DNA from: Micromonospora sp. Llam0
GTDB lineage: Bacteria; Actinomycetota; Actinomycetes; Mycobacteriales; Micromonosporaceae
Length of the DNA: 64,000 nucleotides
NCBI RefSeq assembly: GCF_003751085.1
Contig: NZ_RJJY01000001.1
Coordinates: forward strand, 2,170,001-2,234,000
Reading direction: 5' to 3'
The notes under the pieces are model-generated. The model was not told the origin of the DNA, searched no databases, and was given only the letters and a program-made list of their open reading frames with translations. Shown in pieces: positions 49,398 through 55,749 of the stretch (the first letter of the stretch is position 1; every line of letters starts with the position of its first letter). Position numbers and translations under genes: made by a program.

Positions 49398-49509
49398 GCC
49401 ACGACCGGGGCCCATCGCCGATCACCGGCGCCGGACATGACGGTCGCCACGTCGGGGGTGACATCCGGTCCACCATGAGGTAGGTTCTTCTCAGGTTGAG
49501 TTGTTCTTA

Positions 49510-49526
49510 GTTAGAGATTTTCTAAC
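49510..49526. promoter_or_regulatory. Inverted repeat upstream of the Nudix/NrtR-like gene
   Basis: GTTAGA and TCTAAC arms flank the 5-base spacer GATTT; outer TTGTT (49501) and AACAA (49524-49528) extend the symmetry. It lies 16 bases before the ATG at 49543, in an A/T-rich patch. It is a good candidate operator for the regulator encoded immediately downstream. Confidence 0.55.
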
Positions 49527-49542
49527 AACGAGAGGGATCGCG

Positions 49543-50361
49543 ATGTCGGAGGCCGAGTTCCTCGCCAGCTACGACCCCCGGGCGTTCCCACCGGTCGCCG
49601 TCACCGTCGACGTGGTGGCGCTGACCATCCGCGACGCACAGCTGCATGCGCTGCTCGTGCGGCGGGGCGCCCCGCCGCACGAAGGGGCCTGGGCGCTGCC
49701 CGGCGGCTTCGTCCAGCCCGACGAGGACCTGCTCACCGCCGCCGCCCGGGAGCTGGCCGAGGAGACCGGGCTGGACACCCGACCCGGCCGGGCCACCGCG
49801 ATGGACCGGGTGCACCTGGAGCAGCTGGCCAGCTACGGCGCACCCGAGCGGGACCCCCGGATGCGGGTCGTCTCCGTGGCGTACCTCGCCTTCGCTCCCG
49901 AGCTGCCCGACCCGGCGGCCGGCAGCGACGCCGCCGCAGCGGCCTGGGTGCCGGTGGACGCGCTCGGTCTGCCCGAACGGGCCGACCCGGGCCGACCGGT
50001 GCGGCAGCGACCCGGCACCAGCCGTCGCCTCGCCTTCGACCACGCCCGGATCGTCGTCGACGGCCTGGACCGGGCCCGCGCCAAGCTCGAGTACACCCCG
50101 CTGGCCACCCGGTTCGTCGGCGACGAGTTCACCATCAGCGAGCTGCGCAGCGTCTACCAGACCGTCTGGGGCGTCGAACTGCACGCCGGCAACTTCCACC
50201 GCAAGGTGCTGTCCGTGCCCGGCTTCCTGGAAAGCGTCGGCGCCACCACCGAACGCGGCGGCCCACGCGGCGGGCCCCGGTCGCGCATCTACCGGGCCGG
50301 CGACGCCCGACTGCTGCACCCGGCGCTGCTGCGCCCCGCCCGGGAGGAGGAGGTCAGATGA
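49543..50361 (+). CDS. Nudix domain / winged-helix regulator (NrtR-like)
   Basis: A 272-residue protein. Residues about 12-150 are a Nudix domain with a full box (GGFVQPDEDLLTAAARELAE followed by ETGL) preceded by GAPPHEGAWALP. The C-terminal part is a winged helix (YTPLATRFVGDEFTISELRS, VYQTVWGVELHAGNFHRKVL). This layout defines the NrtR group, in which the Nudix part senses ADP-ribose or related nucleotides and the wing binds DNA. All Nudix-box residues are kept, so hydrolysis of a nucleoside diphosphate derivative is possible. The ATG follows GAGAGGGATCGCG. The stop overlaps the next gene (ATGA). An inverted repeat upstream suggests autoregulation of the four-gene unit. Confidence 0.9.
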   Translation: MSEAEFLASYDPRAFPPVAVTVDVVALTIRDAQLHALLVRRGAPPHEGAWALPGGFVQPDEDLLTAAARELAEETGLDTRPGRATAMDRVHLEQLASYGAPERDPRMRVVSVAYLAFAPELPDPAAGSDAAAAAWVPVDALGLPERADPGRPVRQRPGTSRRLAFDHARIVVDGLDRARAKLEYTPLATRFVGDEFTISELRSVYQTVWGVELHAGNFHRKVLSVPGFLESVGATTERGGPRGGPRSRIYRAGDARLLHPALLRPAREEEVR

Positions 50362-51368
50362 CCGTGACCGACGCGATCACACTCGTCATGACCGCCCGCC
50401 ACCCGACCGAGGTGTTCGGCACCGACCAGGCGACCCGGCGCTACCACCAGCTGGCCCGGCTGCTGCACCCGGACACCGCCGGGGCGGCCGCACCCGACCG
50501 ACGCGCCACCGCCGCGTTCCTGCAGCTGACCGAGCTGTGGCGGCGGCACCTCGCCGACGGCCGGGACACCGTCACCATCGACACCGGACGGTACCGGTAC
50601 GTCGTGGACCGAACCGCCCGCTACACCGGCGACCTCGCCGACCTGTACCGGCACGGCGACGACCGGCTGGTCAAGGTGCCCCGGGACCCGGCCAACAACG
50701 ACCTGATCGCCCGGGAGGCGACCGCGCTGGCCCGGCTCGCCGAGCGGGGCGACGCCCGCTACCTGCCGTACGTGCCCCGGGTGGTGGACGAGTTCCGCCA
50801 CCGCGACACCGGCACCGGCGCCGTCCGGCAGGTCACCGTGCTGGGGACCGCCGCCGGGCTGCGCAGCCTCGCCGAGGTCCGCCGGGCGTACCCGGACGGG
50901 GTCGACGCCCGCGACGCGGCCTGGATGTGGCGGCGGCTGCTGGTCGCGCTCGGCTTCGCCCACCGCGCCGGGCTGGTCCACGGCGCGGTGCTACCCGACC
51001 ACGTCCTCATCGAGCCCGACCAGCACGGCGTGGTGCTGGTCGACTGGTGCTACGCCAGCATCGACGCAACGCCGGTGCCGGCGCTGGTCCCGGCGTACGC
51101 CGACTGGTATCCCGACGAGATCCGCCGACGTCGCAGCCCCGGCCCCGGCACCGACCTCGCGATGGCCGCCCGCTGCCTGGACTGGCTGACCGGTGGCCGG
51201 GCACCGGAGCCGATGCGCCGGTTCACCGCCGGCTGCCAGCTGGCCGCGCTGCGGCAGCGGCCCGACGACGCGTGGCGGCTGCTCGCCGAGTTCGACGACC
51301 TGCTCGAACGGCTATACGGCCGCCGCCGGTTCCGGCCGTTCACCATCCCCGACCCCAATCACCGTTAA
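50358..51368 (+). CDS. J-domain protein with C-terminal pseudokinase
   Basis: A 336-residue protein. Residues about 20-65 form a compact J-like domain: RRYHQLARLLHPDTAG with the HPD tripeptide, then a helix (AFLQLTELWRRHL). Residues about 90-330 have a protein-kinase-like layout: RLVKVPRD (strand-3 Lys), REATALARLAE (helix-C Glu), GLVHGAVLPDHVLIE at the catalytic loop and VVLVDWCYA at the DFG position. The catalytic Asp of HRD is replaced (HGA), while Lys, Glu and the DFG-type Asp remain. It is therefore probably a pseudokinase that may bind nucleotide. J-domains recruit Hsp70. It overlaps the Nudix regulator and is followed by the vWA gene. Confidence 0.8.
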   Translation: MTVTDAITLVMTARHPTEVFGTDQATRRYHQLARLLHPDTAGAAAPDRRATAAFLQLTELWRRHLADGRDTVTIDTGRYRYVVDRTARYTGDLADLYRHGDDRLVKVPRDPANNDLIAREATALARLAERGDARYLPYVPRVVDEFRHRDTGTGAVRQVTVLGTAAGLRSLAEVRRAYPDGVDARDAAWMWRRLLVALGFAHRAGLVHGAVLPDHVLIEPDQHGVVLVDWCYASIDATPVPALVPAYADWYPDEIRRRRSPGPGTDLAMAARCLDWLTGGRAPEPMRRFTAGCQLAALRQRPDDAWRLLAEFDDLLERLYGRRRFRPFTIPDPNHR

Positions 51369-51396
51369 GAATCACCCGCTTCGAAGGAGCCCCGAC

Positions 51397-52365
51397 ATGG
51401 GCAGTGGAGCCTGGTCAACTGACGTCTACCGCGCCGCGAGCGCCTACCGCAAGGCCACCGGCGCCAGCGCGTTCGCCTACAGCGACGGCGGCGCCCGCAC
51501 CGTCCACCCGACCCTCGACCCGGGCGGCGTCGCCGCCCGGGAGAGCCGCGACTCGACCGAACACCCGCAGTCGCTGGCTGTCGCCGTCCTGTTCGACGTC
51601 ACCGGATCGATGGGCGGCGTGCCCCGGACGCTGCAGCAGAAACTGCCGCAGCTGCTCGGCCTGCTGCTGCGCAAGGGCTACGTCACCGACCCGCAGATCC
51701 TGTTCGGTGCGATCGGCGACGCGACCTGCGACCGGGTGCCGCTGCAGATCGGCCAGTTCGAGTCGGACAACCGGATGGACGACCACCTGGGCAACATCGT
51801 GCTCGAAGGCGGTGGCGGCGGGCAGATGATGGAGTCGTACGAACTGGCCATGTACTTCATGGCCCGGCACACGTCGATCGACTGCCACCAGCGGCGCGGC
51901 AAGCGCGGCTACCTGTTCGTCATCGGCGACGAGATGGCGTACCCCAAGGTCAAGGCCCGCGAGGTCCGGAAGATCATCGGGGACGACCTCGACGAGGACG
52001 TCCCGCTGCGCGCCATCGTCGACGAGGTCCGTCGCCGGTGGGACACCTACTACCTGATGCCGGCCGGCAGCCACTACGCCGGCAACCGCCGCATCCTCGA
52101 CTTCTGGCGGGACCTGCTGGGGCAGAACGCGGTCGAACTCGACGACCTGGACGCGGTCTGCGAGACCATCGCCACCACCGTGGCGCTCGGCGAAGAGGCC
52201 TGCGACCTCGACACCGCCCTGGCCGACCTGCGCGACGTCGGCGCCGGCGACGCCGCCACCACCGTGTCGCGGGCGCTGGCCCGGATCGGCGCCGACCGCA
52301 GCCCGGCGGTACGCGGCACCCTGCCGGCCGCCTCGGGCCACGCCGACCAGGTGACCCGGCTGTGA
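51397..52365 (+). CDS. vWA-domain protein of the Nudix/J-pseudokinase operon
   Basis: A 322-residue soluble protein. After about 60 hydrophilic residues comes a von Willebrand A-like fold: LAVAVLFDVTGSMGGVPRTL with a DxTxS metal-ion-dependent adhesion site, LFGAIGDATCDRVPLQIGQF, LEGGGGGQMMESYELAMYFM, and KRGYLFVIGDEMAYPKVKAR. vWA proteins of this intracellular type often act as scaffolds or metal sensors with AAA ATPases or chaperones; here the partner could be the J-domain protein. The ATG follows GAAGGAGCCCCGAC. The stop overlaps the GTG of the PurA-like gene. Confidence 0.85.
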   Translation: MGSGAWSTDVYRAASAYRKATGASAFAYSDGGARTVHPTLDPGGVAARESRDSTEHPQSLAVAVLFDVTGSMGGVPRTLQQKLPQLLGLLLRKGYVTDPQILFGAIGDATCDRVPLQIGQFESDNRMDDHLGNIVLEGGGGGQMMESYELAMYFMARHTSIDCHQRRGKRGYLFVIGDEMAYPKVKAREVRKIIGDDLDEDVPLRAIVDEVRRRWDTYYLMPAGSHYAGNRRILDFWRDLLGQNAVELDDLDAVCETIATTVALGEEACDLDTALADLRDVGAGDAATTVSRALARIGADRSPAVRGTLPAASGHADQVTRL

Positions 52366-53681
52366 ACCCGGTGGCCAGCAGCGTGGCCGGGGACGGGACC
52401 GGCCGGCACGTCGCCGTGGTCGACCTCGGCTACGGCGACGCCGGCAAGGGCACCGTCGTCGACTGGTTGTGCGCGAGCGGGCCGGTCGACGCGGTCATCC
52501 GGTTCAACGGGGGCGGGCAGGCGGCGCACAACGTCGTCCTGCCCGACGGCCGGACCCACACCTTCGCCCAGTTCGGCGCCGGCACCTTCCACGGCGTACC
52601 GACGCACCTGTCCCGGTTCGTGGTCGTCGACCCGCTGGCGTTGGCCGGCGAGGCGACGCACCTGGCCGGGATCGGGGTGCCCGACGCACTGGACCGGGTG
52701 ACCGTCGACCGTGAGGCGCTGCTGGCCACCCCGTACCACCGGGCCGCGAACCAGGCCCGGGAGATCGCCCGCGGAGCCGACCGGCACGGCTCCTGCGGGA
52801 TGGGGGTGGGTGAGAGCATGTCGTACGCTCTCGCCCACCCCGACACCGCGCCCCGGGTCGGCGACTGCCTCGACGAAGGCCTGCTGCGGCACCGGCTGAG
52901 ATTGCTGCGAGACCGGCTCACCGCCGAGTTGGGGCCGTTGGACGCCCCGCCGGTGGCCGACACCGTCACCGCGTTCACCGCCTTCGCGCGGCGGGTCGCG
53001 ATCGTCGACGGCTCGTGGACGACCCGGCTGCTGCGCGCCGGACCGGTCGTCTTCGAAGGCGCCCAGGGGGTGCTGCTCGACGAGTGGCACGGCTTCCACC
53101 CGTACACCACGTGGAGCACCACGACGTTCGGCAACGTCGACACGCTGCTGGCCGAGGCGGGTCTGCCGGGTGCGGTGACCCGGCTCGGGGTGCTGCGGGT
53201 GGTGACTCCCCGGCACGGGCCCGGCCCGCTGGTCACCGAGGACCCGGCGCTGCGGCCGGAGGAGCGGCACAACGGCACCAACGCCTGGCAGGGACGGTTC
53301 CGGTTCGGCCACTTCGACGCCGTCGCCCACCGGTACGCGCTGGACGTCACCGGCGGGGTCGACGCCCTCGCGTTGACCCATCTGGACCTGGTCGGACAGT
53401 ACCGGCTGCGGCTGTGCGACGGCTACGACTGGACCGACCGGCTGCCGGTCGGCCCGCCCGGTGACCTGGACCGCCAAGCGGCGCTGACCGCAAAGCTGCT
53501 CGCCAGCCGACCCCGGTACACCGCCGACCCGGAGCCGGACCCGGACGGCTGGGTGGCGGCGGTCGAGGCGGCACTCGGCGTACCGGTGCGGTTGACCTCG
53601 CACGGCCCGACGGCCGCCGACAAGGTCGCCCGTCGCGCTGCCGACAAGGTCGCCCGGCTCACTGCGGCGGCAGGAAGGTGA
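52362..53681 (+). CDS. PurA-like (adenylosuccinate-synthetase-fold) ligase with altered substrate loops
   Basis: A 439-residue enzyme. The GTP loop is VVDLGYGDAGKGTVVDW, compared with QWGDEGKGK in PurA: the catalytic Asp is kept, but Glu and the second Lys are changed. FNGGGQAAHNVVLPDGRTHT keeps the histidine; FEGAQGVLLDEWHGFHPYTT and STTTFGN are close to PurA. The IMP-contact stretch GTTGRGIGP is replaced by HGSCGMGVGES, and the aspartate loop TTGRxRR by TNAWQGRFRFGHFD. The GTP/phosphate machinery is thus largely kept while the acceptor and amino-acid sites differ, so I doubt this is the housekeeping enzyme. The GTG overlaps the vWA stop, and the 3' end overlaps a convergent gene by 23 bases. 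Confidence 0.82.
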   Translation: MNPVASSVAGDGTGRHVAVVDLGYGDAGKGTVVDWLCASGPVDAVIRFNGGGQAAHNVVLPDGRTHTFAQFGAGTFHGVPTHLSRFVVVDPLALAGEATHLAGIGVPDALDRVTVDREALLATPYHRAANQAREIARGADRHGSCGMGVGESMSYALAHPDTAPRVGDCLDEGLLRHRLRLLRDRLTAELGPLDAPPVADTVTAFTAFARRVAIVDGSWTTRLLRAGPVVFEGAQGVLLDEWHGFHPYTTWSTTTFGNVDTLLAEAGLPGAVTRLGVLRVVTPRHGPGPLVTEDPALRPEERHNGTNAWQGRFRFGHFDAVAHRYALDVTGGVDALALTHLDLVGQYRLRLCDGYDWTDRLPVGPPGDLDRQAALTAKLLASRPRYTADPEPDPDGWVAAVEAALGVPVRLTSHGPTAADKVARRAADKVARLTAAAGR

Positions 53682-54708
53682 CCTCGGTAGGCCCGCCGCC
53701 GGTGATCACCACTGGCGTCGCGCTGTCGAAGTCGGTGCCGCCATGCCAGCTGGTGGTGCCGCCACACAGACACTGGATCTTGACCTGCTGCCCGAGGACG
53801 ACCCGGATCCGCACCTTGGAGCCGGAGCCCAACGAGCCGACGCCCATGGATTCGCCGGTGGCCACGTTGCGCAGCACCACCCGGTTGTCCGAGCCCGCCG
53901 GCGGGTCAGGAAAATTGACGATGGCGGACACACCGCGCTTGACAGTGAAGTCGATAGGCGAACCGCTTGGTACGGTGGCCTGGATCAGATCAGCCCGCAG
54001 CCGGTTGCCGCCACCCCCGCTCCACTGGTCTGCATGTCCCGGGATCCGGAACAGCAGCGGCCACTCGTACGGGCCGAGCCAGTTGATATTGAAGCTGCCG
54101 TCGTAGTAGATCGGGCTGGACATGGACGGCAGCCGATACTCGGGCTCCAGGGCGGCGATCCCGACAGTGCCACGCTGTCCCGGAGGCAGGGCCGGATCCG
54201 GAGCCGGGAGCTTCCCCCGAATCGATCCGCTTCGGTCGATGAAGATCGTCGGCGCCGTCTTGGTCTCACCCGGCACCGACACGGTGATCTGCCGAGCCGA
54301 CTGTTGCGTCCCGGTGCCGCCGGACGGCCCCACCCACTGCGACCCGTACCCGGTGTAGCCAGGCGCACGCGCGAAGAGGTTGTACGAGCCCGGTACCGGC
54401 ACCGTCACAGTGACCCGTCCCAGCCCGGTCGACGACCTGCAGAGCTCCTGCAAGTTGAAGGTGCCGCGCGCGGGGACGGCGAAGAGGCAGACGCCCTTCA
54501 TCGGCAGTCCGGTGTCGCGGGCGTACACCCAGGTCTTGATGTACGCCTCGGTCGACTGTGCATTGGCGGCGCGCGCCGGCGGCCCGCCGACCATGGTGAC
54601 GACGAGGGCGGCGATCGCTACCGCCACACCCGCCATCCGGAACCAGGCTGTCACCTGATCGTGCCGGCCGTGCACCTGAACAGACGATCCCCTGCCGCTG
54701 CCTGCCAT
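53659..54708 (-). CDS. Secreted protein of an unrecognised paralogous family (copy C)
   Basis: A 349-residue exported protein. The signal segment is at about residues 22-48 (WFRMAGVAVAIAALVVTMVG, cleavage near ARA). It shares with its two paralogues GVCLFAVPARG, LCRSSTG, VPGSYNLFARA, YGSQWVGPSGGTGTQQSARQ, INWLGPYEWPLLFRI, DQWSGGGGNRLRADLI, and near the end CLCGGTTSWHGGTDFDSATP. The first domain resembles a carboxypeptidase-regulatory-like beta-sandwich, and a central insert (LPAPDPALPPGQRGTVGIAA) varies between copies. No active site is recognisable. It starts 12 bases after the stop of copy B with GGGGAGAG before the ATG, so the two form an operon. Confidence 0.8.
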   Translation of the reverse strand: MAGSGRGSSVQVHGRHDQVTAWFRMAGVAVAIAALVVTMVGGPPARAANAQSTEAYIKTWVYARDTGLPMKGVCLFAVPARGTFNLQELCRSSTGLGRVTVTVPVPGSYNLFARAPGYTGYGSQWVGPSGGTGTQQSARQITVSVPGETKTAPTIFIDRSGSIRGKLPAPDPALPPGQRGTVGIAALEPEYRLPSMSSPIYYDGSFNINWLGPYEWPLLFRIPGHADQWSGGGGNRLRADLIQATVPSGSPIDFTVKRGVSAIVNFPDPPAGSDNRVVLRNVATGESMGVGSLGSGSKVRIRVVLGQQVKIQCLCGGTTSWHGGTDFDSATPVVITGGGPTEVTFLPPQ

Positions 54709-54720
54709 GTCGACTCTCCC

Positions 54721-55749
54721 CTACCGCATGTCGATGTTGATGCCGGCGTAGTAGGCGGCAACGACCGGCGTGGCGTCGGCGAAGCTGGTACCACCGTACC
54801 AACGTGTCCCGTCAGGGCATTGGCACTCGATCCTGACCTGCTGTCCACCGATGATGGTCGCTCCGGCCGAGTTGTCCGACTCATCGAACTCACCGACCCC
54901 CATGACGTCCCCGGTAGCGCTGTTGTAGAGGACCACCCGCCCCGGCGAGCCGATCGAGAAGCTGGCTACCTGGACTCGAATTCCGGCTCCCCTGAACCGC
55001 AGAGTACGGAACGTGTACGGTTCGGCCGAGCCGCCGACGACCGCCGGAACCACCTCGGCGATCAACCGGTTGCCGACCCGCCCGCTCCACTGTGCCGGGC
55101 CGCCCTGCGGCCGGTACAGCACCGGCCACTCGTACGGGCCGACCCAGTCGAGCTCGAAGGTACCGTCGACGTCGACCGGTACCGATCGCTGCTCCCGGTG
55201 CACGTCCAGCTGGATCGGCGCGACGGAGACCAGCCCCGTGGGGTCCCCGGCCCAGTGGTCGACCACGCCGCTGATCGTGGCGCGCGGATCCAGCAGGATC
55301 TGCGCGACCCGTTTCGTCTCGCCGGCGGCGAGGGTGACCCGCCGGGCGTCCTGCTGCCGGCCGGTGCCGCCGTCCGGGCCCACCCACTGGGCACCGTACG
55401 GGCTGTCCAGCTTCGGCAGGGCGAACAGGTTGTACTGCCCCGGCCCCGGCACGTCGACGGTCACCCGACCACCACCGCCGCTGCGGGCCGGGCACGCGTT
55501 CGGCAGGCTGAACGTCGGCACCGGCATGGCCAGCACACAGACACCCTTGACCGGCTCCCCGGTGGCCCGGTCGAACACCCGGGTGGTGATGGCGGCACCG
55601 ACGTCGCTCCCGGAGGCTGGTGCCGCCGCCGCGCCGCTGGTCATCACCACGGCCAGCGCTACCCCGGCCGCAGCCGACAACAGTCGCCGAGTGTGGCCGG
55701 AGCGGACGCCCGACCGGGGGTCCGGACACCACCGCCTGCTGCCTGTCAT
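54721..55749 (-). CDS. Secreted protein of an unrecognised paralogous family (copy B)
   Basis: A 342-residue exported protein. The signal peptide is at about residues 20-43 (TRRLLSAAAGVALAVVMTSG, cleavage near AAAAP). Family motifs in order: GVCVLAMPVP, NACPARSG, GPGQYNLFALPK, YGAQWVGPDGGTGRQQDARR, FELDWVGPYEWPVLYRP, QWSGRVGNRLIAEVV, and ECQCPDGTRWYGGTSFADAT. The first two cysteines are common to all three copies; the second pair (CxC) only to copies B and C. It is the first gene of the tandem pair. Function unknown; the beta-rich architecture suggests binding to a surface polymer. Confidence 0.8.
   Translation of the reverse strand: MTGSRRWCPDPRSGVRSGHTRRLLSAAAGVALAVVMTSGAAAAPASGSDVGAAITTRVFDRATGEPVKGVCVLAMPVPTFSLPNACPARSGGGGRVTVDVPGPGQYNLFALPKLDSPYGAQWVGPDGGTGRQQDARRVTLAAGETKRVAQILLDPRATISGVVDHWAGDPTGLVSVAPIQLDVHREQRSVPVDVDGTFELDWVGPYEWPVLYRPQGGPAQWSGRVGNRLIAEVVPAVVGGSAEPYTFRTLRFRGAGIRVQVASFSIGSPGRVVLYNSATGDVMGVGEFDESDNSAGATIIGGQQVRIECQCPDGTRWYGGTSFADATPVVAAYYAGINIDMR

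What the first reader, a model, noticed from the sequence alone, without database searches (positions are those of the whole stretch)
49543..53681. Four-gene unit: Nudix/NrtR regulator, J-domain pseudokinase, vWA protein and PurA-like ligase
Three of the junctions are tight (two 4-base overlaps and one 28-base gap), and the gene products are an odd combination: a nucleotide-sensing regulator, a chaperone-recruiting pseudokinase, a metal-dependent scaffold and a ligase of the adenylosuccinate synthetase fold. I do not know a described pathway that needs these four. A nucleotide or NAD/ADP-ribose linked stress or conflict system, or synthesis of a modified nucleotide, would explain a Nudix sensor next to a purine ligase. 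A candidate operator stands before the first gene.
Basis: partly seen in the sequence, partly recalled or inferred. Interest (0 to 1): 0.8.

Follow-up and report, generated by a model that had tools for sequence, protein, structure and literature searches.

The report
Phage-shared vWA and PurA-like ligase operon
A four-gene bacterial operon whose core, a metal-binding vWA protein and an unusual relative of a purine-making enzyme, is also kept together in many large bacterial viruses, pointing to an undescribed reaction that both bacteria and phages use.

Summary
Window 49543-53681 is a tight four-gene unit (NrtR-type Nudix regulator, J-domain pseudokinase, vWA protein, PurA-like ligase) behind a conserved tandem operator. 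The Nudix gene is a bacterial add-on (2 of 80 viral loci) and the pseudokinase dispensable (20 of 80 viral loci and three Hamadaea lack it), so the core is vWA plus ligase. The ligase is neither PurA nor PurZ: Asp13, His41 and Gln224 are kept, aspartate-site Thr301 and Arg303 are not. The vWA begins Met-Gly in 182 of 188 rows although that tail is modelled as coil. Best reading: a vWA-coupled ligase making an N6-substituted purine nucleotide or conjugate with an amine other than free aspartate, aided by DnaK and controlled by the Nudix sensor. The chemistry is inferred.

The parts
49484..49526 (+). operator: two GTTnTTCTyA half-sites 16 bp apart (49484, 49500) followed by the inverted repeat GTTAGAGATTTTCTAAC (49510-49526)
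   Evidence: 59 of 79 loci have GTTnTTCTCA; shuffled mean 8.4, max 14; exact double motif once in own genome
49543..50361 (+). NrtR/AraR-type regulator: Nudix domain with intact Nudix box (GFVQPDEDLLTAAARELAEETG) plus winged helix
   Evidence: solved relatives 3gz5/3gz6, AraR 5bs6, NadQ 7q91 on the C-terminal part; that 3gz5 is NrtR is recalled
50358..51368 (+). J domain (HPD at residues 37-39) fused to a pseudokinase (HRD replaced by HGA; invariant Trp189)
   Evidence: (phrog_3043)
51397..52365 (+). vWA protein with MIDAS start DVTGSM, conserved GDE loop and near-invariant N-terminal Met-Gly
   Evidence: (phrog_2971)
52362..53681 (+). PurA-superfamily ligase, neither PurA nor PurZ: Asp13, Lys16, His41, Gln224 kept; Thr301 to Gln; Arg303 not conserved
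   Evidence: (phrog_1211)

Best explanation
The unit encodes an undescribed ligase system whose minimal core is the vWA protein plus a PurA-superfamily ligase. Shown by sequence and genome comparison: the two nearly always travel together, in bacteria and in large phages; the ligase keeps residues that activate the 6-oxo group of a purine nucleotide in PurA but lacks canonical aspartate-binding residues; the vWA metal-site start is intact; the third protein is a J domain on a kinase fold without the catalytic Asp; in bacteria a Nudix-winged-helix regulator with a conserved upstream motif usually adjoins the genes. Inferred: the ligase phosphorylates O6 of a (deoxy)IMP- or GMP-like nucleotide with an NTP and lets an amine other than free aspartate displace it, giving an N6-substituted purine nucleotide or purine conjugate. 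The vWA protein is its obligate partner, presenting the amine or the target through its metal site or its conserved Gly N-terminus. The J-pseudokinase brings DnaK to load or reset the complex. The Nudix protein represses the operon until it binds ADP-ribose or the pathway's own nucleotide. The confidence is for this chemistry and these roles as a whole; that the conserved unit is real I hold at 0.97.
For: Linkage: vWA and PurA-like in the same 20 of 246 genomes, none of 226 with one alone. Around vWA genes fetched, PurA-like is present in 78 of 80 named-genome loci, 76 of 80 viral, 19 of 19 class genomes, 5 of 6 plasmid, 3 of 3 phage; of the eight misses, at least five (L068, L075, L152, L153, L177) lie on contigs that end soon after the vWA. 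Distances of vWA, kinase and PurA agree over 79 loci (Spearman 0.90, 0.92, 0.93; for the two vWA pairs 0 of 200 permutations as high). Pseudokinase dispensable: absent from 20 of 80 viral loci, some cut short; in 9 such viral records and 2 phages searched whole only three short J-domain matches in two records; three Hamadaea genomes show no kinase match above 46.4 bits. Ligase: Gln at Thr301 in 176 of 177 rows, no conserved Arg at 303, a later Arg in 175 of 177, His41 in 177 of 177 (numbers printed there are one low). Chain 1cg4 has Leu where the first Arg after TTG stands in the other E. coli chains, which places Arg303 (that 1cg4 is the R303L mutant is recalled). Asp13 is kept in all 26 family rows aligned with phiVC8 PurZ, which has Ser. 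vWA: DVTGSM positions 98-99%, D178 and E179 in all 188 rows; MG start in 182 of 188, that codon being the first possible start of its frame in 135 of 183; Gly2 is one of 13 invariant columns among 69 sequences, yet residues 1-7 are coil and the first ten average pLDDT 77. In phage Quasimodo an intein-like insert lies directly before FIGDE (weak Hint and intein matches, below cut-off). Regulator.
Against: No biochemistry: substrate, amine and product are unknown. Loss of Arg303 can also mean a deoxynucleotide or another way of holding aspartate; the loop alignment has a one-residue gap of uncertain place. Lys331 is mostly His or Cys here (Ser or Asn in others), so the NTP is open. The strict Nudix box is found in 56 of 98 regulators; some of the 42 misses are cut ORFs or loops with insertions, but others are degenerate, so a common ligand is not shown. 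HPD residues are kept in at least 92% of bacterial but only 76-79% of viral rows. Exceptions to linkage: plasmid locus L011 has no PurA-like gene within 8 kb, G132 has only a partial vWA match, Yucca a short vWA gene.
Confidence: 0.4

Rival explanations
1. The PurA-like protein makes a modified purine deoxynucleotide for phage DNA, as PurZ does; bacteria have borrowed the pathway.
For: Same superfamily as PurZ; phrog_1211 bears the label 2-aminooxy adenylosuccinate synthetase; found in large phages; Arg303 is not conserved.
Against: Asp13 is kept, whereas all 147 phage PurZ proteins have Ser there (PMC12884076 section 24), as does phiVC8 PurZ in my alignment. None of the eight viral neighbour clusters scanned is a nucleotide-pool enzyme of the DatZ or MazZ kind (no dedicated search was made). 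vWA and J-pseudokinase have no evident role in such a pathway, nor has a chromosomal copy an evident use for it (inference).
Confidence: 0.2
2. A conflict or defence system: infection or NAD loss is sensed by the Nudix repressor, the operon is induced, and the ligase makes a toxic or signalling nucleotide; phages carry it against competitors or host defences.
For: NrtR-type sensors are proposed to regulate conflict operons with vWA co-chaperones (PMC9503650, passages). Spread is patchy (20 of 246 in the class), and the vWA tree needs five virus-bacterium label changes, at least three forced by well-supported branches.
Against: No neighbour cluster beyond the unit exceeds 29 of about 105 bacterial loci (clusters not identified); 109 of 200 genomes of the family have it; PADLOC gives only weak kinase and Nudix matches. 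No challenge data.
Confidence: 0.2
3. A chaperone or assembly unit: J-pseudokinase plus vWA recruit DnaK to remodel a protein complex (virion parts in phages), and the PurA-like protein is a secondary nucleotide-dependent switch.
For: J domains and vWA proteins are typical co-chaperones (general knowledge; PMC7824862 passages); in phage I3 the genes lie a few genes after lysins and terminase.
Against: The J-pseudokinase is the part most often missing while the ligase almost never is; in the window's genome the unit stands alone on a 6.2 Mb contig; ligase catalytic residues are kept.
Confidence: 0.12
4. An ordinary purA paralogue that only duplicates AMP synthesis, in a chance gene neighbourhood.
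For: Pfam Adenylsucc_synt match at 1.1e-56.
Against: Each of the 20 genomes has at least one further PurA match, the 13 that are listed scoring 158.9-172.4 bits, over 230 bits below the PurA-like ones; aspartate-site residues are not conserved; the neighbourhood is kept across phyla and phages.
Confidence: 0.03

Closest known systems
PurZ / PurZ0 systems of Z-genome phages (phiVC8, S-2L, SH-Ab 15497)
   Same: Phage-borne PurA-superfamily ligase acting on purine nucleotides
   Different: Asp13 is kept (PurZ: Ser), the TTGRxRR loop reads N-x5-Q-G-x2-R, and the partners are vWA and J-pseudokinase, not DatZ, MazZ or DpoZ
Canonical adenylosuccinate synthetase PurA (1ade, 3hid)
   Same: Fold, G-loop, Asp13, Lys16, His41, Gln224
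   Different: Thr301 to Gln, Arg303 not conserved, Val273 to His (RHG), Lys331 mostly His or Cys; 406-507 bits to the family profile against 182.8 at most for other PurA matches
Nudix- or WYL-regulated ADP-ribose systems with a vWA co-chaperone (PMC9503650)
   Same: Nudix-HTH sensor beside a vWA protein (passages)
   Different: Those centre on an ARG domain and phosphatases; the words adenylosuccinate and PurA do not occur in the paper's main text
Ter stress systems with TerF/TerY vWA proteins
   Same: vWA protein and a predicted nucleoside-like product (as summarised in PMC7824862, passages; the TerY vWA-kinase-phosphatase triad is recalled)
   Different: The ligase here is of the PurA fold and the partner a J-pseudokinase; Ter neighbours were not searched for by name
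NrtR / AraR Nudix regulators (3gz5, 5bs6)
   Same: Nudix plus winged helix, conserved upstream motif
   Different: NCBIfam NtrR scores 110.6 against a cut-off of 400; stands beside this operon, not NAD or arabinose genes

Membership tests
PurA (adenylosuccinate synthase) | Pfam fold match | tested here: met
   1.1e-56, 192.8 of 27 bits
PurA (adenylosuccinate synthase) | NCBIfam equivalog cut-off | tested here: not met
   148.7 of 402 and 111.7 of 395.55 bits
PurA (adenylosuccinate synthase) | aspartate-binding Thr301 and Arg303 | tested here: not met
   Gln in 176 of 177 rows; no conserved Arg at 303; one-residue gap in the loop
PurA (adenylosuccinate synthase) | makes adenylosuccinate from IMP, Asp, GTP | not testable with these tools
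   needs enzyme assay
PurZ (succino-amino-deoxyadenylate synthase) | Ser in place of Asp13 | tested here: not met
   Asp in all 26 family rows, the window among them; PurZ of phiVC8 has Ser
PurZ (succino-amino-deoxyadenylate synthase) | NCBIfam PurZ cut-off | tested here: not met
   31.3 of 300 bits
NrtR family | Nudix plus NrtR winged helix | tested here: met
   PF00293 and PF21906 above cut-off
NrtR family | NCBIfam NtrR equivalog cut-off | tested here: not met
   110.6 of 400 bits
NrtR family | releases DNA on ADP-ribose | not testable with these tools
   needs binding assay
vWA domain | fold and MIDAS start DxTxS | tested here: met
active protein kinase | HRD Asp and catalytic-loop Lys | tested here: not met
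   HGAVLP in the window; Ala or Gly at the Asp site in all bacterial and most viral rows of the 131 aligned
J domain | HPD motif and helical J fold | tested here: met
   HPD in the window, each residue in at least 92% of bacterial and 76% of viral rows; helices at 3-67 in the model; DnaJ-PKA chimera among structural matches
Ter system | TerD/TerC/TerB and PRTase neighbours | tested here: inconclusive
   none among the eight viral neighbour clusters scanned; bacterial neighbour clusters were not identified by family

The most novel reading that the evidence does not exclude
The PurA-like ligase uses the vWA protein itself as its amine donor: after Met removal the conserved Gly2 amine attacks C6 of an O6-phosphorylated purine nucleotide, giving a purin-6-yl-glycyl protein, a new kind of protein-nucleotide conjugate, charged with DnaK help and used by phages and bacteria as a carrier or signal. 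It would explain why the ligase lost the free-aspartate site, why vWA and ligase hardly ever part, and why a flexible N-terminus is almost invariant.
Probability: 0.1. Interest if true: 0.95.

Novelty: categorically new. Interest (0 to 1): 0.78.

Why it matters
It is a conserved, testable gene system of large phages (189 Mycobacterium-type phage records; 300 viral-contig stretches) and of 109 of 200 sampled genomes of the window's family, with no function that I could find described. The ligase is a branch beside PurA and PurZ with an altered amine site, so it may make a purine compound nobody has looked for. The Mycobacterium phages carry it under the names kinase, hypothetical protein and PurA-like, so it can be tested at once in Mycobacterium smegmatis mc2 155. 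The folds are known; it is the system that has no counterpart in the searches made.

Tried and rejected
Ordinary purA duplicate: rejected. PurZ pathway: not a member by Asp13 and cut-off. Extra partner genes: looked for by all-against-all clustering of ORFs of 80 aa or more in the flanks held. The largest bacterial cluster reaches 29 loci; bacterial clusters were not scanned for families, and I take them for genus synteny and antisense ORFs without proof. Of the viral clusters eight were scanned, the largest in 12 of 80 loci: an R2K ATP-grasp in 12, DNA ligase with HNH, exoribonuclease, two HAD repair phosphatases, a GIY-YIG endonuclease, two without match. PADLOC: only weak kinase and Nudix matches. 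Papers: searches in the open PMC library showed no paper on the combination; subscription papers are not covered. Seen of papers: passages only of PMC9503650, PMC7159879, PMC9476963, PMC7824862 and PMC4431377; passages plus section 24 of PMC12884076; of the rest only listings. Roles of the E. coli residues, the name NrtR for 3gz5, the R303L nature of 1cg4, the cluster C label for I3-like phages (Pinkcreek is called C1 in PMC9476963) and the TerY triad are recalled. A single-protein scan of viral contigs found nothing; the alignment scan did. A kinase-alignment scan failed for want of a conserved stretch.

Results against the reading: the Nudix box is not universal; L031 (G132) has only a partial vWA match beside a full ligase; phage Yucca has a short vWA gene beside an annotated PurA-like gene; plasmid locus L011 has no PurA-like gene within 8 kb; the phylum sample has the vWA in only 2 of 396 genomes.

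Rows dropped before counts: one search used 177 of 182 PurA hits, 188 of 189 vWA hits, 131 of 162 kinase hits (short matches left out); loci L001, L002 and L012 (own genome) were left out. Residue numbers printed are one lower than E. coli numbering; one search has the right ones. The iterated profiles took in out-of-frame extensions; counts come from the seed profiles.
Full report

Conservation. I built seed profiles of each gene and counted them around every vWA homologue fetched. PurA-like genes are present in 78 of 80 named-genome loci, 76 of 80 viral-contig loci, 19 of 19 other genomes of the class, 5 of 6 plasmid loci and 3 of 3 named-phage loci; kinase genes in 76, 60, 18, 6 and 1 of these; Nudix genes in 78, 2, 12, 5 and 0. 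Several misses lie on contigs or loci that end near the unit. In an even sample of 246 genomes of the class, 20 have the vWA and the same 20 have a PurA-like protein at 406-507 bits, the next best match being at 182.8. Each of the 20 has at least one further PurA match; the 13 of these that are listed score 158.9-172.4 bits, as canonical PurA does in other genomes. In the window's family 109 of 200 genomes have the vWA, among them the seven same-genus genomes listed (71 genomes without a match are not listed). In the phylum sample it is 2 of 396. The protein search found 5349 relatives of the vWA among the 7999 candidates scored.

Phages. Against 50,697 phage records the vWA protein finds 207, of which 188 are Mycobacterium, 1 Mycolicibacterium, 10 Rhizobium and 6 Vibrio phages; the kinase finds 191 records. 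In mycobacteriophage I3 (Bixzunavirus) the order is kinase, vWA, a 112-residue protein, PurA-like, some genes after the terminase gene. One Rhizobium and one Vibrio phage looked at have vWA and PurA-like but, in place of the kinase, an unrelated Met-rich protein, and no kinase match anywhere in the record. Viral contigs gave 300 relatives; 80 were kept, 30 of them from records of 100-437 kb. PHROGs holds the four as phrog_1198, 3043, 2971 and 1211.

What the core is. Three Hamadaea genomes have Nudix, vWA and PurA-like genes without the pseudokinase, and a whole-genome search with the kinase profile finds no match above 46.4 bits, the level of generic kinases. Twenty of 80 viral loci also lack it; nine of these records searched whole gave only three short J-domain matches, in two records. 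The Nudix gene is upstream in most actinobacterial loci, downstream in the Rhodococcus and Tsukamurella plasmids seen and divergent in Agrobacterium. vWA and PurA-like are therefore the core. The distances of vWA, kinase and PurA-like agree at Spearman 0.90-0.93 over 79 loci. On the vWA tree the viral and bacterial labels need five changes, at least three of them forced by well-supported branches, so the unit has moved between viruses and bacteria more than once; the quick method and the identity-ranked sample do not settle the direction.

The ligase. In an alignment of 26 family rows with E. coli PurA, the genome's own PurA and phiVC8 PurZ, the family keeps Asp13, Lys16, His41 and Gln224. PurZ has Ser at Asp13, in line with the published 147 of 147 phage sequences (PMC12884076, section 24). 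In 177 family rows Thr301 is Gln in 176, the Arg303 site is not conserved and a later Arg is kept in 175; Val273 is His in all 26 rows. Chain 1cg4, with Leu at that site, places Arg303. So nucleotide activation looks kept and the aspartate site remodelled. That paper counts 481 phage PurA homologues; the parts I saw do not discuss those outside the PurZ group.

The vWA protein. Its N-terminus is Met-Gly in 182 of 188 rows; three further proteins (L135, L136, L176) also begin MG but align from a later residue. In 135 of 183 that codon is the first possible start of the frame, and it is ATG in 181. Gly2 is one of 13 invariant columns among 69 divergent sequences, although residues 1-7 have no secondary structure in the model and the first ten average pLDDT 77. 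In mycobacteriophage Quasimodo an insert with weak, sub-threshold Hint and intein matches lies directly before the FIGDE stretch; inteins often sit at functionally critical sites (general knowledge), which points to that loop.

The regulator. The 120 bases upstream of 79 Nudix genes hold GTTnTTCTCA in 59 cases against 8.4 in shuffled sequence, in several twice with 16-bp spacing; the window has GTTCTTCTCA at 49484, GTTGTTCTTA at 49500 and an inverted repeat at 49510-49526. The exact double motif occurs once in the whole genome, which suggests a single-operon regulator, though weaker sites were not sought. Solved relatives include 3gz5 (NrtR), AraR and NadQ; the Nudix box is intact in the window.

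Mechanism. I propose a vWA-coupled ligase making an N6-substituted purine nucleotide or purine conjugate with an amine other than free aspartate, helped by DnaK through the J-pseudokinase and repressed by the Nudix sensor. Shown: domain identities, residue patterns, linkage, upstream motif. Inferred: substrate, amine, roles of vWA and DnaK, repression and inducer. The boldest reading, that the vWA Gly2 amine is itself the acceptor, is not excluded.

Novelty. Ten paper searches in the open library showed no account of this combination. Component folds are all known; the system is not, as far as these searches reach.

Noticed in passing
L204 1465-3282 (Mycobacterium phage Quasimodo): The vWA gene carries an in-frame insert of about 255 residues with weak Hint/intein matches, directly before the FIGDE stretch; other Mycobacterium phages show the same two-piece match.
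   Followed up: partly
L004 6774-7568 and L005 7216-7935: A Rhizobium and a Vibrio phage have an unrelated Met-rich protein of about 240-265 residues in the place of the pseudokinase; the L004 one has no Pfam match.
   Followed up: partly
L031 (G132 C1 3603748-3607182): Only positions 155-296 of the vWA profile match beside a ligase gene: possibly a decayed or frameshifted vWA copy.
   Followed up: no
L205 2965-3504 (Mycobacterium phage Yucca): A short vWA gene (540 bases with its stop codon) stands between annotated kinase and PurA-like genes.
   Followed up: no
L172, L143, L138 and nine further viral loci: An R2K-clade ATP-grasp ligase, a clade predicted to modify proteins (PMC4431377, passages), lies near the unit in 12 of 80 viral loci.
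   Followed up: partly
window 53659-55749, minus strand: Two tandem, similar-looking ORFs of 349 and 342 residues converge on the operon's last gene; their function was not looked up.
   Followed up: no
L129 (416 kb viral contig): Two Nudix matches flank the vWA gene and the kinase match lies after the PurA-like gene: a rare viral locus with a Nudix gene.
   Followed up: no
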